From Enterospora canceri (lineage: Eukaryota > Microsporidia > Enterocytozoonidae): a stretch of DNA of 27,321 bases. The position numbers were made by a program, and so were the translations under genes. This document shows positions 16,078 to 22,163 of this stretch, piece by piece. Where the stretch lies: NCBI GenBank assembly GCA_002087915.1, contig LWDP01000042.1, positions 1-27,321 of the forward strand, in the 5' to 3' direction. The notes under the pieces are model-generated. The model saw only the letters and a program-made list of their open reading frames with translations. It ran no database searches and was not told the origin of the DNA. Each line of letters starts with the position of its first letter. Positions within the stretch are counted from its first letter, which is position 1.

Positions 16078-16941
16078 TTAACCATTTAATTGTTCATATT
16101 GGACCAACTCAGTGCTTCGTATCTTATCCTCGTATGAAAATAGTGGTCCAAAATTCAGCTCTGCCTCTGCTCCGCCATAAAGTGAGAGAGCAGGACGCAA
16201 TTGCCCAGGTTTCTTATCCACTTTGATTCCGTCATGAATTTGGATACCGTTTTGGTAGAAATAAACACAGAGACCATCTTCACTCTCATTTAGAAAGCAG
16301 CTCAGGATGTTACCTGGTGTGATCCGTTCTCCAATAACACGCCTTTTTGATTTCGTGATGAAATAGCCATTTTTCATTTGGTAGCCAAATGACTCGGCAT
16401 CGTATCCAAGTGGCCCAAGCATCTCCGCCTTTTCTGTTGCGTATCCAACTCTGCATACGCCCTTTCTTGAAANGCCATAAAGTGAGAGAGCAGGACGCAA
16501 TTGCCCAGGTTTCTTATCCACTTTGATTCCGTCATGAATTTGGATACCGTTTTGGTAGAAATAAACACAGAGACCATCTTCACTCTCATTTAGAAAGCAG
16601 CTCAGGATGTTACCTGGTGTGATCCGTTCTCCAATAACACGCCTTTTTGATTTCGTGATGAAATAGCCATTTTTCATTTGGTAGCCAAATGACTCGGCAT
16701 CGTATCCAAGTGGCCCAAGCATCTCCGCCTTTTCTGTTGCGTATCCAACTCTGCATACGCCCTTTCTTGAAATAATCGATATCTCAAAATATGAGATATC
16801 GTGTTCATTCTTGTACATGCAAAGCTTATGATGTTTTACGTCTGATCTGATTTTGATGCAGTTTGGTTCATCTCCTTCTACGCTGTAGCTTCCACTGTGC
16901 TTGAAATCCTCGTTTTTAACTGTTGAGAATCTTTTGTTCAT
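16078..16941 (-). CDS. SPRY-domain protein, Ash2/Bre2-like (ORF inflated by an assembly duplication)
   Basis: SPRY domains of Ash2/Bre2 proteins bridge the COMPASS histone H3K4 methyltransferase subunits; other SPRY proteins act in ubiquitination. The core is visible: DISYFEISIISRKGVCRVGYATEKAEMLGPLGYDAESFGYQ, where the CRVGYAT and LGPLGYD segments fit Ash2/Bre2 and hnRNPU-type SPRY domains. ITPGNILSCFLNE and VYFYQNGIQIHDGI follow. An N at 16473 separates two identical 299-bp copies, so a 100-residue block is read twice. Without it the protein is 187 aa and continuous (SLYGGAEAELNFGPLF). It starts 7 bp from the displaced NBP35 stop codon, so the retroelement lies about 92 bp upstream of its ATG. 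Confidence 0.75.
   Translation of the reverse strand: MNKRFSTVKNEDFKHSGSYSVEGDEPNCIKIRSDVKHHKLCMYKNEHDISYFEISIISRKGVCRVGYATEKAEMLGPLGYDAESFGYQMKNGYFITKSKRRVIGERITPGNILSCFLNESEDGLCVYFYQNGIQIHDGIKVDKKPGQLRPALSLYGXSRKGVCRVGYATEKAEMLGPLGYDAESFGYQMKNGYFITKSKRRVIGERITPGNILSCFLNESEDGLCVYFYQNGIQIHDGIKVDKKPGQLRPALSLYGGAEAELNFGPLFSYEDKIRSTELVQYEQLNG
16174..16472. repeat. Exact 299-bp duplicate, copy 1 (left contig end)
   Basis: Identical base for base to 16474-16772, from which it is separated by a single N. Most simply the overlapping end of one contig that was not merged with the next. It lies inside the SPRY gene. Confidence 0.9.
16474..16772. repeat. Exact 299-bp duplicate, copy 2 (right contig start)
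   Basis: Second copy of the 299-bp block in the SPRY gene, offset by exactly 300 bp. Sequence after 16772 continues the gene normally towards its start. Confidence 0.9.
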
Positions 16942-16948
16942 TCTGCGG

Positions 16949-17033
16949 TTAAAAATTCATTGCTTTTCTTATTCCGCTACAAATTTGTGCGATATTTTCA
17001 TCGTGTTCAATTTGACCAGAATCGAGTTCCCTG
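16949..17033 (-). pseudogene. Displaced 3' end of NBP35 (left of the retrotransposon)
   Basis: On the minus strand, from the target-site CCCTG at 17029-17033, an open frame runs 26 codons to a TAA at 16949-16951. Joined at the duplicated CCCTG, it continues exactly in frame from the NBP35 body at 21097 and beyond. It begins ELDSGQIEHDEN and ends KAMNF. The stop lies 7 bp from the SPRY start, which is the normal gene spacing here and supports this as the original gene end. Confidence 0.85.
17029..17033 (+). repeat. Target-site duplication CCCTG (left)
   Basis: CCCTG directly before the 5' LTR matches CCCTG at 21092-21096 directly after the 3' LTR. Five bp is the usual duplication length for Ty3/gypsy integrases. 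Confidence 0.92.
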
Positions 17034-17233
17034 TGACGCAACTTGCATCTCATCAGATTTAGGAGGAGAAGTTTTCACTAATGATAGGTTTGACAGCTAG
17101 GTATAAAAGAAAACGGGATTTGTAACCCATCGTATGAGTCAATATAACAACCAACATACACGCCACAGGAGCGGAGCGAACGCTAGACCGGCAGGATTGA
17201 ATAAAGTCTTATCATCACTACCCGGTTACCTCA
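17034..17233 (+). repeat. 5' LTR of the Ty3/gypsy element (200 bp)
   Basis: Starts TGACGCAACTTGC and ends CGGTTACCTCA. It contains a TATA box (TATAAAAG, 17102-17109) and the ATG of the Gag-Pol frame at 17134, so the last third of the LTR is coding. 199 of 200 bases match the 3' LTR. Confidence 0.95.
17102..17109 (+). promoter_or_regulatory. TATA box in the 5' LTR
   Basis: TATAAAAG lies 32 bp before the Gag-Pol ATG. With a typical TATA-to-start distance of about 25-30 bp the transcript would begin almost at the ATG, leaving a very short leader. Confidence 0.6.
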
Positions 17234-20200
17234 GTTTGAATTCAAAGAGGGTAAAAGACGAATACAATACGATAGCAGGAGAATCAGGCGAGCAAGTGAA
17301 ATACCCGATATACAGGGAAGGTCACGTGATATGCCAGTTGAGCATAGATCGATACGTAGACCACACTACACAAGACATCGTCGATTGGGCCAAGAGAATA
17401 CGGCCTATAATGAAACGCTGCTTTAAGGAGGATGAGGAAGCGAAGGAGGAATTACAGATATTGGTGGATCAGAGATACCATCACCTCTTCGCTAGATGTG
17501 CTCTGTTTGAAAAATGTTTAGAGAAACTAACAGAGTTAACTTATAATCGAGAAATGTTTGGACGATTGCTAGTAGCCTTAGAGGATCTACGAGCTGCTAT
17601 GTTCCCGGACCTACATGGCTATAGGGAAATGCACGATCGCCTAATAGAGAGAACCGATATGTGCATCAACGCACCCAGACGCTTAGGAGAGTTCGAAAAA
17701 GAAGATCTATTTGTAAATGGACTACGAACTTGGATGAAGGAAGAATGGATACGACTCGGAGACAAAGGGTTCGATGCGAAAATAGGTATCCTGATAGCAT
17801 TGGAAAGAAACCGAGTAGAGTCCTGGAATCAGGAATCGCATTACACTCAGCAGAGGAAGTACTGTCCTCGGCACCGAAGCTACACACATGGCCCAGAAGA
17901 GTGCTTCGACAGAACTAGGACAAGCAACAGCAACAAGGGCTCTCAAGCTAAGAATGCGAAAGACAATATCCGCATGATTCAGGAAGAAAAGATCCAGTGT
18001 CAGAAAATTGGACTAGGAGGACTAATTTTGGAAGAGCCCATCCAGGTCGTCCTGGACACTGGTGCACGGCTGACTTACATAAGGAAGGAGGCCCAAGAGA
18101 AATTAAAGTTACCCATAGAAAAGGTAGAGGCCACAGTGCACCTAGCTAACGGTAGAACTGTACAAATCAATGAACAGACGGAAACCGAAATGGAGCTAGT
18201 GGGAATCTCTCATACCCGGTACAAAGTGAAAGCCTTGGTATTGCCAGGCCTGACAGAGGATCTGATCGTAGGCCTAGACTTCATGTGTAACAATGGGATG
18301 GTCCTGGACCTAAAGAAAGGGATCATATCAGTGGATGGCTACGAGTTGCTCATTGAGGAATTCCAAGACAAAGAAGCCAGTCGACCAGAAAATCTATTGG
18401 TGGATAACCTCAGGCAAGTAGTAAGAGAACCGGAAACACTGGAGGATGTTGTTCAGGGATTTAAGGCAACGAATCCCATCTTAGGAAATATCGACGGTCA
18501 AGAACACGAGATCCATCTGACCAGCGATAAACCAGTACACTTCAAGCCCTACGGGCTACCTTTCAAGGTATTGGGGGAACTAAAACAACAGATAAAGGAC
18601 ATGCTGGACCAGGGACTGATAAGCCGTAGCAGTTCCAAATACGGTAGCCCCAGCTTTGGAGTCCTAAAGAAAAACGGAGCAGTGCGAATGGTAACAGACT
18701 TCAGGGCACTCAACCAGATAACAGAGAAGGAGGTCTATCCGTTTCCGAACGTCAAGGACCAGTTGCAAGGATTGCATGGAAGGAAGGTGTTCAGTCAAAT
18801 CGACCTAGATAAGGGATTCTATCAAATTAGAATCCGGAAAGAGGATAGACACAAGACAGGCTTCGTGTTGCCTTTCGGACAGTACGAATATAATCGGCTG
18901 CCTTTCGGCATGGCCAATAGCCCACGCTCTTTCCAACGGGCTATGGATGGAATGCTTCGAGGATTAGACTGTGTTAGAGTATTCGTAGACGACGTACTCA
19001 TCGCTAGTTCAAGTTTAGACGATCACGTAAGGGACGTGAAACTAGTGTTAGAAAGGTTACAAGGAAGTGGAGCTAAGATCAATTTCGAAAAGAGTCATTT
19101 CGGCTTACCTCAGGTGAACTATTTAGGTATGATCATTTCGGAGCACGGAATACGAGCGGATAGCTCAAAGATACACATCGCTCGAATGGAGGAAGCACCA
19201 AAGAACGCGAAAGAAGCAAGGAGACTGCTATGGCTCCTAAATTGGTTTCGTGATTTCGTACCAAGAATGAGCGATAAAGTATTGCCTTTGACCAAAAAGA
19301 TGAAATTGGAAAAGGGAAAGTTTTTCTGGGATCAGGAAGACGAAAGTATGCGAAAAGGGATTTTCGAGGAAATTGAGAAGGAGAATCTATTGCGCCATGT
19401 CGACCCTAGTAAGCCGTTCGAACTACAAGTCGACGCATCAAAAGAAGGCATATCAGGGGTATTGTTGCAGGAAGGAGCAATAGTAGGAATCTACAGTCAT
19501 AAACTGCAAGGATCGGAACTCAATTATACAATCGTAGAAAAAGAATTCTACGCAATAGTTAGGAGTATACAGCATTTCCATAAGCTGGTATGGGGAAGCA
19601 AGATCAAACTAAAAACGGACAGCAAGAACAACAGCTATAATCAACCGGCTGAAGGAAGCAGGATGAACAGGTGGAAGAGCATTCTCAACGAGTACGAGAT
19701 TGAACTCGAACACATTGAAGGCATTAAGAACAGTCTGGCCGATTACTTCAGTAGAGAAGGATGTGAAGATTGTCTGCGATGGTCAACCGAACAGGGATTA
19801 TTTGCAATCCTCTTTGGAGCGCCATTGAGCACGGAGGACAAGAGTGAGGGAATGCAATTTCTCGAACAATGGCAAATCTACTTAAGTAAGGAGGGCAGAG
19901 TAATTGTCCCTAGGAACAAGGGAAAAGAAGTCGCATGGGAGATACATGAAAGAACTATGCATGCCGGGGAAACCACGATGTGGCTGACCATATCCCGGTA
20001 TTTGACAGGAAAAGAGTTACGAGAAAGACTCAGAGAGGTCAGCATGGAATGCCAATATTGCATGGTCTATAAGAACCGCAAAAGCAATTATGGATTTATC
20101 GGAAGAGGTTACTACGGTAAGGACTTCAACGATACCTTAGCTTCGGATTTGGTAGGACCCTTTGTAAGGAAAACTGACAAAGGAAGAATGAAGGTCTGGG

Positions 20201-20889
20201 TCATCTCATTCATCGACCTATGGAGCCGATGTATTAAGTTGAGAGCACTAACCACGATCAATAGTAGAACCGTGTTAGAAGCTTTCGAGAGTTGGATAAA
20301 GGAAAATGGGAAACCTAGGAGGTTCCTAAGCGATAATGGGGGATGTTACACGAGTAAGGAATTCAAGGATTATTTGAAAACCAACGGCATCCAAACCCTA
20401 GCCTTAAGCGCTTATAATCCACGAGGAAACGGAATAGCCGAGCGCTACAATCAAAGGATTAGTCTAGGCATGCGCATAACGAAGGACATCCCATTGGACA
20501 CGGCCATAGAGCGAATTACCCAGGGATTGAACGAAACTGCCAACAGAAGCACGGGATATAGTCCAAAGGAAGTAGTACACCAAACGAGCATTTTCAACTT
20601 GGCTCGAAAACGAGTCACTATAAGCAAGCAAGAATTGAAGGAAAGAAACATGAAGAGTCAGGGAATCAATCAGAAACGCGAAAACGACAAACGAGTACAG
20701 CACCATTGGGACGTCGGCGAAGTAGTCTACGTCAAGGTAGGGGCAATGCCAGGGAAAATGGACTCCCGACAATTAGGACCATTCCGTATCACTAAGGTGT
20801 TAAAGGAATCAGGAGTTCTGGAGATTGAGAACACTCGCAAACGTATGTGGGTGAATCAGCGTAGGGTGGTACCTCTAAAGGTGGGGTAG
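17134..20889 (+). CDS. Ty3/gypsy Gag-Pol polyprotein (1251 aa)
   Basis: One uninterrupted frame encodes everything. Residues ~1-290 are Gag-like, with a short Cys/His segment (YCPRHRSYTHGPEECF, 243-258). The aspartic protease active site is LDTGA (Asp308). Reverse transcriptase spans ~460-690, with Asp557 in QIDLDKGF and FVDD at 617-620. RNase H follows with Asp767 in QVDASKEG. Integrase has an HHCC zinc-binding part (His938, His943, Cys973, Cys976) and the DDE residues Asp1005, Asp1067 and Glu1103. A C-terminal GPF/Y module (LGPFRI, ~1214) is typical of Ty3/gypsy. No stop or frameshift interrupts it, so no gag/pol frameshift is used. It starts inside the 5' LTR and ends 2 bp before the 3' LTR. 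Confidence 0.95.
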   Translation: MSQYNNQHTRHRSGANARPAGLNKVLSSLPGYLSLNSKRVKDEYNTIAGESGEQVKYPIYREGHVICQLSIDRYVDHTTQDIVDWAKRIRPIMKRCFKEDEEAKEELQILVDQRYHHLFARCALFEKCLEKLTELTYNREMFGRLLVALEDLRAAMFPDLHGYREMHDRLIERTDMCINAPRRLGEFEKEDLFVNGLRTWMKEEWIRLGDKGFDAKIGILIALERNRVESWNQESHYTQQRKYCPRHRSYTHGPEECFDRTRTSNSNKGSQAKNAKDNIRMIQEEKIQCQKIGLGGLILEEPIQVVLDTGARLTYIRKEAQEKLKLPIEKVEATVHLANGRTVQINEQTETEMELVGISHTRYKVKALVLPGLTEDLIVGLDFMCNNGMVLDLKKGIISVDGYELLIEEFQDKEASRPENLLVDNLRQVVREPETLEDVVQGFKATNPILGNIDGQEHEIHLTSDKPVHFKPYGLPFKVLGELKQQIKDMLDQGLISRSSSKYGSPSFGVLKKNGAVRMVTDFRALNQITEKEVYPFPNVKDQLQGLHGRKVFSQIDLDKGFYQIRIRKEDRHKTGFVLPFGQYEYNRLPFGMANSPRSFQRAMDGMLRGLDCVRVFVDDVLIASSSLDDHVRDVKLVLERLQGSGAKINFEKSHFGLPQVNYLGMIISEHGIRADSSKIHIARMEEAPKNAKEARRLLWLLNWFRDFVPRMSDKVLPLTKKMKLEKGKFFWDQEDESMRKGIFEEIEKENLLRHVDPSKPFELQVDASKEGISGVLLQEGAIVGIYSHKLQGSELNYTIVEKEFYAIVRSIQHFHKLVWGSKIKLKTDSKNNSYNQPAEGSRMNRWKSILNEYEIELEHIEGIKNSLADYFSREGCEDCLRWSTEQGLFAILFGAPLSTEDKSEGMQFLEQWQIYLSKEGRVIVPRNKGKEVAWEIHERTMHAGETTMWLTISRYLTGKELRERLREVSMECQYCMVYKNRKSNYGFIGRGYYGKDFNDTLASDLVGPFVRKTDKGRMKVWVISFIDLWSRCIKLRALTTINSRTVLEAFESWIKENGKPRRFLSDNGGCYTSKEFKDYLKTNGIQTLALSAYNPRGNGIAERYNQRISLGMRITKDIPLDTAIERITQGLNETANRSTGYSPKEVVHQTSIFNLARKRVTISKQELKERNMKSQGINQKRENDKRVQHHWDVGEVVYVKVGAMPGKMDSRQLGPFRITKVLKESGVLEIENTRKRMWVNQRRVVPLKVG
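17235..17246 (+). other. Palindrome TTTGAATTCAAA at the expected primer-binding site
   Basis: Reverse transcription of LTR elements is usually primed just downstream of the 5' LTR. Here that position is coding and holds a perfect 12-bp palindrome instead of the TGG expected for pairing to a tRNA 3' CCA end. Internal tRNA priming or self-priming are possible; neither is shown. Confidence 0.4.
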
Positions 20890-20890
20890 A
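20877..20890 (+). other. Polypurine tract of the retrotransposon
   Basis: AAAGGTGGGGTAGA directly precedes the 3' LTR and overlaps the last Gag-Pol codons. Position and purine content fit the plus-strand primer of reverse transcription. Confidence 0.65.
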
Positions 20891-20891
20891 C

Positions 20892-21091
20892 TGACGCAAC
20901 TTGCATCTCATCAGATTTAGGAGGAGAAGTTTTCACTAATGATAGGTTTGACAGCTAGGTATAAAAGAAAACGGGATTTATAACCCATCGTATGAGTCAA
21001 TATAACAACCAACATACACGCCACAGGAGCGGAGCGAACGCTAGACCGGCAGGATTGAATAAAGTCTTATCATCACTACCCGGTTACCTCA
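20892..21091 (+). repeat. 3' LTR of the Ty3/gypsy element (200 bp)
   Basis: Matches the 5' LTR except A instead of G at 20980. It repeats the TATA box and the first 33 codons of Gag-Pol, which then read out into host sequence as a short open frame ending at 21195. It also supplies the last two codons and the new stop of the interrupted NBP35 gene on the minus strand. Confidence 0.95.
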
Positions 21092-22163
21092 CCCTGCACA
21101 TTTTGATACTGAAATTTATTCTGCCTAAGAAAATAAGGCTGTTTTTGGTACTGAATAGTTCAACTGCTCCAGTACCAAATACGTCATTGATGTGACCGCA
21201 TTCTATGCATTCTATCCCACTCATGTTTTCTACTACGCCCAAAACACGCATTTTGGCCTTTTTACAGAAACTAAGCTGTCTATTCAAATCAGACATTGCA
21301 AGTGGATGTGGCGTAGAAATCAGCACCGTAGAGCATTCTTTGATGTAATTGAAGAGCGCAATATGTTCATCAGTGATATTTGGTGGTGTATCAATGATCA
21401 GGATATCACAATTGTCAAAATTGCAATTTTTCAGAATCTTCTTGATCAAATACGTCTTGTAACTACTATCAAATATGTCACTGGTTGTGTTAATGTGTCC
21501 TACTGAGAATGTTTTGTATCCATTTGCATCAATTGGATCAAATGTATCGTCAATGTTCGATATTATATGATTTTCCGTTTGTGTTAATTTTGGAATTGAC
21601 GGACCAGATAGGTCAAAATCAATTAGAAGCACATTATGATGCTGTTTGAGGTGACTNGCAATATGTTCATCAGTGATATTTGGTGGTGTATCAATGATCA
21701 GGATATCACAATTGTCAAAATTGCAATTTTTCAGAATCTTCTTGATCAAATACGTCTTGTAACTACTATCAAATATGTCACTGGTTGTGTTAATGTGTCC
21801 TACTGAGAATGTTTTGTATCCATTTGCATCAATTGGATCAAATGTATCGTCAATGTTCGATATTATATGATTTTCCGTTTGTGTTAATTTTGGAATTGAC
21901 GGACCAGATAGGTCAAAATCAATTAGAAGCACATTATGATGCTGTTTGAGGTGACTAGCAAGTTGTACAGACATGAAACTCTTACCAACACCGCCTTTGC
22001 CACACATTATTGCAACAATCTGTTTAAACTGTTTCAATCTTTCTTTGATTCGATCGATATCTGGATCCGGTTTGGCTGTCTTACATTTCTCTGCACTGGG
22101 ACACCCTTTACATCCTTCTGCAACACCAGCCTCTTTGCTTCCTACTCCTGGACAACTATTCAT
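21084..22163 (-). CDS. NBP35: Cytosolic Fe-S assembly P-loop ATPase Nbp35, 3' end cut by a retrotransposon and ORF inflated by an assembly duplication
   Basis: Nbp35 is the scaffold ATPase of cytosolic and nuclear iron-sulphur protein assembly. The N-terminus has the Nbp35-type cluster motif: Cys4, Cys18, Cys21, Cys27 (C-x13-C-x2-C-x5-C), which Cfd1 lacks. The Walker A is MCGKGGVGKSF; DFDLSGPSIP and IIDTPPNITDEH follow. The C-terminal cluster pair is CIEC in GIECIECGHIND. The ATG at 22163 follows CCCCCC on the minus strand. Two defects overlie the gene. An N at 21657 between identical 299-bp copies repeats 100 residues. The Ty3/gypsy 3' LTR replaces the last 26 codons with Val-Arg-stop. The real product here would be about 259 aa, against about 283 aa before insertion. 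Confidence 0.92.
   Translation of the reverse strand: MNSCPGVGSKEAGVAEGCKGCPSAEKCKTAKPDPDIDRIKERLKQFKQIVAIMCGKGGVGKSFMSVQLASHLKQHHNVLLIDFDLSGPSIPKLTQTENHIISNIDDTFDPIDANGYKTFSVGHINTTSDIFDSSYKTYLIKKILKNCNFDNCDILIIDTPPNITDEHIXSHLKQHHNVLLIDFDLSGPSIPKLTQTENHIISNIDDTFDPIDANGYKTFSVGHINTTSDIFDSSYKTYLIKKILKNCNFDNCDILIIDTPPNITDEHIALFNYIKECSTVLISTPHPLAMSDLNRQLSFCKKAKMRVLGVVENMSGIECIECGHINDVFGTGAVELFSTKNSLIFLGRINFSIKMCRVR
21092..21096 (+). repeat. Target-site duplication CCCTG (right)
   Basis: Second copy of the 5-bp duplication flanking the retrotransposon; it lies within the NBP35 coding sequence. Confidence 0.92.
21358..21656. repeat. Exact 299-bp duplicate in NBP35, copy 1
   Basis: Identical to 21658-21956 with a single N between. 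Best read as an unmerged contig overlap; it doubles the stretch from SHLKQHHNV to NITDEHI. Confidence 0.9.
21658..21956. repeat. Exact 299-bp duplicate in NBP35, copy 2
   Basis: Second copy, offset by exactly 300 bp. The sequence right of it continues normally into the Walker A region of the gene. Confidence 0.9.

What the first reader, a model, noticed from the sequence alone, without database searches (positions are those of the whole stretch)
16949..22163. A Ty3/gypsy retrotransposon splits the essential Fe-S assembly gene NBP35 and removes its last 26 codons
Seen directly: CCCTG duplicated on both sides of the element. The minus-strand NBP35 frame breaks at 21092-21096 and resumes, in frame, at 17033 with 26 more codons and a stop 7 bp from the next gene. 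The LTR supplies Val-Arg-stop instead. Nbp35 is essential in yeast. Inference: either the shortened protein (all cysteine motifs and Walker A kept) still works, or the insertion is one allele among nuclei or strains.
Basis: partly seen in the sequence, partly recalled or inferred. Interest (0 to 1): 0.8.

Follow-up and report, generated by a model that had tools for sequence, protein, structure and literature searches.

The report
Jumping gene truncates parasite iron-sulfur gene
In the crab parasite Enterospora canceri a young retrotransposon sits inside the only NBP35 gene found and cuts off the protein's last helix, and its partner protein CFD1 ends early at about the same place.

Summary
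A 4,058-bp Ty3/gypsy-type LTR element with an open frame lies at 17034-21091; its 200-bp LTRs differ at one base and CCCTG is duplicated at its edges. It sits in the minus-strand NBP35 frame and replaces the last 26 codons with Val-Arg-stop. The contig is Enterospora canceri (Microsporidia). The 2.24 Mb held contains no other NBP35; the one other family hit is CFD1.

New here: the lost tail carries a D-x-G motif (43 of 44 aligned relatives) and, in the nearest relative, a confidently predicted terminal helix. CFD1, the scaffold partner, also ends early in this genome without any element: 17 residues after the last strand's Gly, against 34-51 in 48 aligned relatives. The NBP35 frame also holds an assembly artefact, an exact 299-bp repeat around one N, so the deposited 359-aa protein is 100 residues too long.

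I rate a working scaffold without terminal helices slightly ahead of an unseen intact allele; reads must decide. A retrotransposon breaking a gene is a known kind. The double truncation is the part worth following.

The parts
17034..21091 (+). Ty3/gypsy-type LTR retrotransposon, full length, frame open
   Evidence: LTRs, target duplication and domains; only full copy of this family seen in the held genome
17034..17233 (+). 5' LTR (200 bp)
20892..21091 (+). 3' LTR (200 bp, one difference)
17029..17033 (.). target-site duplicate CCCTG, left copy
21092..21096 (.). target-site duplicate CCCTG, right copy
17134..20889 (+). single gag-pol type ORF, 1,251 codons; its first 33 whole codons lie inside the 5' LTR
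21084..22163 (-). NBP35 frame as it stands, ending Val-Arg-stop from the LTR; contains the assembly duplicate
   Evidence: same as NUBP2 [Enterospora canceri], 359 aa
16949..17029 (-). displaced NBP35 tail: 26 codons and stop
21358..21956 (.). assembly artefact: exact 299-bp repeat on both sides of one N (21657)
16078..16941 (-). next gene, SPRY domain; starts 7 bp after the displaced stop; 92 bp lie between its ATG and the element; carries its own N artefact at 16473

Best explanation
A Ty3/gypsy-type LTR retrotransposon of the kind known in microsporidia inserted recently into the 3' end of the only NBP35 gene seen in Enterospora canceri. Shown: the insertion, its 5-bp target duplication, the near-identical LTRs, and the loss of the last 26 codons. 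Inferred: the short protein (about 259 residues once the assembly duplicate is discounted) is what the recorded allele makes, and it still serves as cluster scaffold with CFD1, because this lineage's scaffold already tolerates loss of the terminal helix; CFD1 in the same genome ends early at about the matching place without any element.
For: Insertion anatomy. No N and no duplicate at either junction. All four N-terminal Cys, Walker A and the C-terminal CxxC kept (sequence printed). CFD1: 17 residues after the Gly of the last strand, 48 aligned relatives 34-51; no N in its locus; modelled at mean pLDDT 90.9. Rest of the pathway: a Nar1-type match, Dre2 family, Isu-type scaffold. Client types present: primase large subunit and DEAD_2 helicases; in the primase subunit and two of three helicases read, the cysteines are there by eye (ligand positions recalled). 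Neither scaffold protein has the longest terminal branch of its tree: NBP35 ranks 5 of 45, CFD1 9 of 49.
Against: The lost piece is kept by all 44 relatives aligned (33-52 residues against 12; D-x-G in 43, E-x-G in 1) and is a well-predicted helix in the nearest relative (59% identical; model). Both branches are longer than the median (0.537 against 0.303; 0.429 against 0.248). LTRs differ at 1 of 200 bases, so the insertion may be too young to have been tested by selection. A confident model does not show stability. Cia2 and Rli1 were not found in the held part.
Confidence: 0.45

Rival explanations
1. The insertion is real but is one allele among several in the nuclei or spores sampled; an intact allele supplies NBP35 and was lost, collapsed or left in a short contig of the draft.
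For: Conservation of the lost tail; young LTRs; about 28% of the printed assembly size is not held; the contig piece bearing the element is bounded on both sides by overlap joints only 560 and 565 bp from the element, which at the density of the other 9 joints has a chance of about 7 in 10,000.
Against: A 30-base empty-site pattern with up to 3 mismatches has no match in the 2.24 Mb held; the joints are not at the junctions, where I would expect an empty allele to branch (inference); no intact E. canceri NBP35 among the 120 hits listed.
Confidence: 0.4
2. The cytosolic Fe-S scaffold is decaying: both CFD1 and NBP35 have lost their ends because this intranuclear parasite needs its own scaffold less, or takes Fe-S proteins from the host nucleus.
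For: Both partners truncated; Cia2 and Rli1 not found in the held part; branches longer than the median.
Against: Nucleotide and ligand motifs intact in both; Nar1-type, Dre2, Isu and client families present; the absences come from a partial genome.
Confidence: 0.1
3. Assembly error: the draft joins NBP35 to an element that lies elsewhere.
For: The contig has three overlap artefacts.
Against: In-frame continuation across the element plus a matching 5-bp duplication; the overlaps at joints reach 299 bp, longer than the 200-bp LTR; the related C58 element also has a 5-bp duplication.
Confidence: 0.05

Closest known systems
Microsporidian Ty3/gypsy LTR retrotransposons (Parisot et al. 2014, PMC4202319; passages seen)
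   Same: LTRs with one polyprotein instead of separate gag and pol; outside E. canceri the best named relatives are in Nosema granulosis, Nematocida homosporus and Dictyocoela muelleri
   Different: Sits inside a housekeeping gene; polyprotein starts inside the LTR (whether others do was not tested). The paper says such elements are typically absent from small genomes such as Enterocytozoon bieneusi.
Nbp35-Cfd1 CIA scaffold of Trachipleistophora hominis (PMC5216125; passages seen)
   Same: Two P-loop ATPases of the same families
   Different: The proteins labelled T. hominis in the alignments (P0046, P0178) keep the terminal region; both E. canceri proteins lack it.

Membership tests
Ty3/gypsy LTR retrotransposon | Direct LTRs beginning TG and ending CA with short target duplication | tested here: met
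Ty3/gypsy LTR retrotransposon | Domain order protease, RT, RNase H, integrase | tested here: met
   residues 300-384, 511-668, 732-854, 1005-1096
Ty3/gypsy LTR retrotransposon | Primer-binding site matching a tRNA 3' end next to the 5' LTR | tested here: inconclusive
   by eye no TGG start; TTGAATTCAA follows the LTR in both elements; tRNAs were not searched
Nbp35 | N-terminal four-Cys motif, Walker A, C-terminal CxxC | tested here: met
Nbp35 | C-terminal D-x-G loop and last helix of the P-loop domain | tested here: not met
   present in the displaced tail only; the gene is Nbp35 by descent, the recorded product lacks this part
Cfd1 (locus on C14) | P-loop ATPase of PF10609 without the N-terminal four-Cys motif, CxxC kept | tested here: met

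The most novel reading that the evidence does not exclude
Enterospora canceri runs a minimal cytosolic Fe-S scaffold in which both subunits have lost the terminal helix of the P-loop domain, CFD1 by ordinary sequence change and NBP35 by a retrotransposon whose LTR now supplies the stop codon of an essential gene.
Probability: 0.4. Interest if true: 0.65.

Novelty: new member of a known kind. Interest (0 to 1): 0.45.

Why it matters
If the short forms work, the terminal helix of a widely conserved Fe-S scaffold is dispensable, and a transposon has helped to trim an essential gene in a very small genome. If an intact allele exists, this is a visible case of insertion polymorphism in a parasite whose population structure is hardly known (recalled). 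Either way the deposited NBP35 protein is 100 residues too long.

Tried and rejected
A second NBP35: PF10609 gives C14 and the window only; C14 is CFD1 by its lack of the N-terminal cysteines and by its relatives.

An empty site in the held genome: none; this says little, as part of the assembly is missing.

A hidden frameshift giving CFD1 its tail: by eye only 28 bp separate its stop from the next ATG, and no other frame resembles the tail.

PF04068 hit on C17 as Rli1: rejected; the ORF looks like Tsr3 (recalled). The 7 NF009945 matches are all below the cut-off (best 65.9 of 469 bits); I take them for other ABC proteins.

In-frame N duplicates as real tandem repeats: rejected. 299 bp is the commonest and largest size (7 of 11), and 299 plus one N stays in frame by arithmetic. 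That a 300-base overlap graph made them is recalled, not checked.

Symmetry of the joints round the element (560/565 bp): no mechanism found. The pair of joints 5.1 kb apart on C16 has ordinary-looking ORFs and no 20-base direct repeat between them, so joints are not caused by elements in general.

Short tails elsewhere: among all 119 other NBP35 hits listed, 8 have fewer than 20 residues after the Gly; none of these is among the 44 aligned relatives, and I take them, unproven, for incomplete records. Among the 120 CFD1 hits listed one, a 179-aa record, is shorter than E. canceri's.

Papers: nothing on this insertion in the listings (open library only; some searches listed part of their hits). 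Passages were seen of PMC5216125, PMC4202319, PMC8007109, PMC13174016, PMC12134460 and PMC9164220; PMC8007109, PMC13174016 and PMC9164220 were not used. The E. canceri genome paper (Wiredu Boakye et al. 2017) was seen only as a citation.

One search also held a stray 33-residue piece of L001, with no match.

Full report
What is there. The window is a 27,321-bp contig of Enterospora canceri, a microsporidian listed among intranuclear parasites (passage; that its host is a crab is recalled). The protein NUBP2 [Enterospora canceri] is 100% identical to the window's frame and lies on a contig of the same length. At 17034-21091 stands a full-length LTR retrotransposon with one open frame of 1,251 codons holding protease, reverse transcriptase, RNase H and integrase matches. 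Its LTRs are 200 bp with one difference (0.5%, 95% interval about 0.01-2.8%). CCCTG is duplicated at its edges.

What it hits. On the minus strand NBP35 runs from 22163 to the element. The LTR end supplies Val-Arg-stop; the missing 26 codons lie beyond the element at 16949-17029 and continue in frame when the flanks are joined in a script. The next gene, with a SPRY domain, begins 7 bp after the displaced stop, so the displaced tail now makes up most of the 92 bp between that gene and the element. That it acts as a promoter there is only a guess.

Is the pathway still needed? A Nar1-type match, Dre2 family, an Isu-type scaffold, a primase large subunit and three DEAD_2 helicase matches are present. 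In the primase subunit and two of the three helicases the cysteines I recall as cluster ligands are present by eye (the third was not read). Cia2 by PF01883 was not found, and Rli1 by NF009945 gave only matches far below the cut-off. The held genome is 2.24 Mb in 75 contigs; a paper's table gives 3.10 Mb in 537 contigs and 288-fold coverage (passage of PMC12134460), so these absences are weak.

The element family. The held genome shows one full copy of this family, one LTR 90% alike on C29 and four shorter or more diverged LTR pieces (the tool calls such counts lower bounds), and a more distant pol on C16 (32% identical over part). A second full element on C58, 46% identical in protein, has identical 211-bp LTRs (0 differences) and target duplicate GATTT, so such elements have moved recently. 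In both, the polyprotein's first ATG lies inside the 5' LTR, with 33 and 49 whole codons in the LTR, and TTGAATTCAA follows the LTR. PMC4202319 (passages) describes a single polyprotein for microsporidian Ty3/gypsy elements and suggests that drift can fix insertions.

Assembly. All 11 single-N joints in 196,059 bp (the window, five other contigs whole, one but for its last 58 bases, and the last 25,750 bases of C14) are flanked by flush exact duplicates: 7 of 299 bp, the others 293, 283, 269 and 185. One lies in NBP35, so its 359-aa record is 100 residues too long. Two joints bound the element's contig piece at 560 and 565 bp from the element. One within 566 bp on each side has a chance of about 7 in 10,000 at the density of the other 9; I cannot explain it. 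It could hint at alternative sequence nearby, but I would expect an empty allele to branch at the junctions themselves, and there is no joint there.

Verdict. Whether the short NBP35 is the only form is open: 0.45 working and sole or main form, 0.4 one allele among several, 0.1 decay, 0.05 artefact. Reads across the two junctions would settle it.

Noticed in passing
L001:1474-2163 (G000:C14): CFD1 lacks the terminal region kept by 48 of 48 aligned relatives, and no identical protein is among the 120 database hits listed.
   Followed up: yes
16473, 21657, 26415 and 8 joints on other contigs: All 11 single Ns examined join two exact flush duplicates of 185-299 bp; three frames of this window are inflated by 98-100 codons each.
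   Followed up: yes
16474-21656: The contig piece holding the element ends almost symmetrically, 560 and 565 bp from the element; cause unknown.
   Followed up: partly
17134-17233; L031:1967-2114: In both full elements the polyprotein start lies inside the 5' LTR, and a palindrome TTGAATTCAA sits just after it, without the TGG start expected of a tRNA primer site.
   Followed up: partly
L031:1904-6028 (G000:C58): A second Ty3/gypsy-type element with identical 211-bp LTRs and target duplicate GATTT.
   Followed up: partly
L005:1501-1693 (G000:C29): An LTR 90% like this family's, with no internal part matched, flanked by GTTGT/ATTGT (4 of 5 match, by eye).
   Followed up: partly
G000: Cia2 (PF01883) and Rli1 (NF009945 over cut-off) not found in the held 2.24 Mb.
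   Followed up: partly
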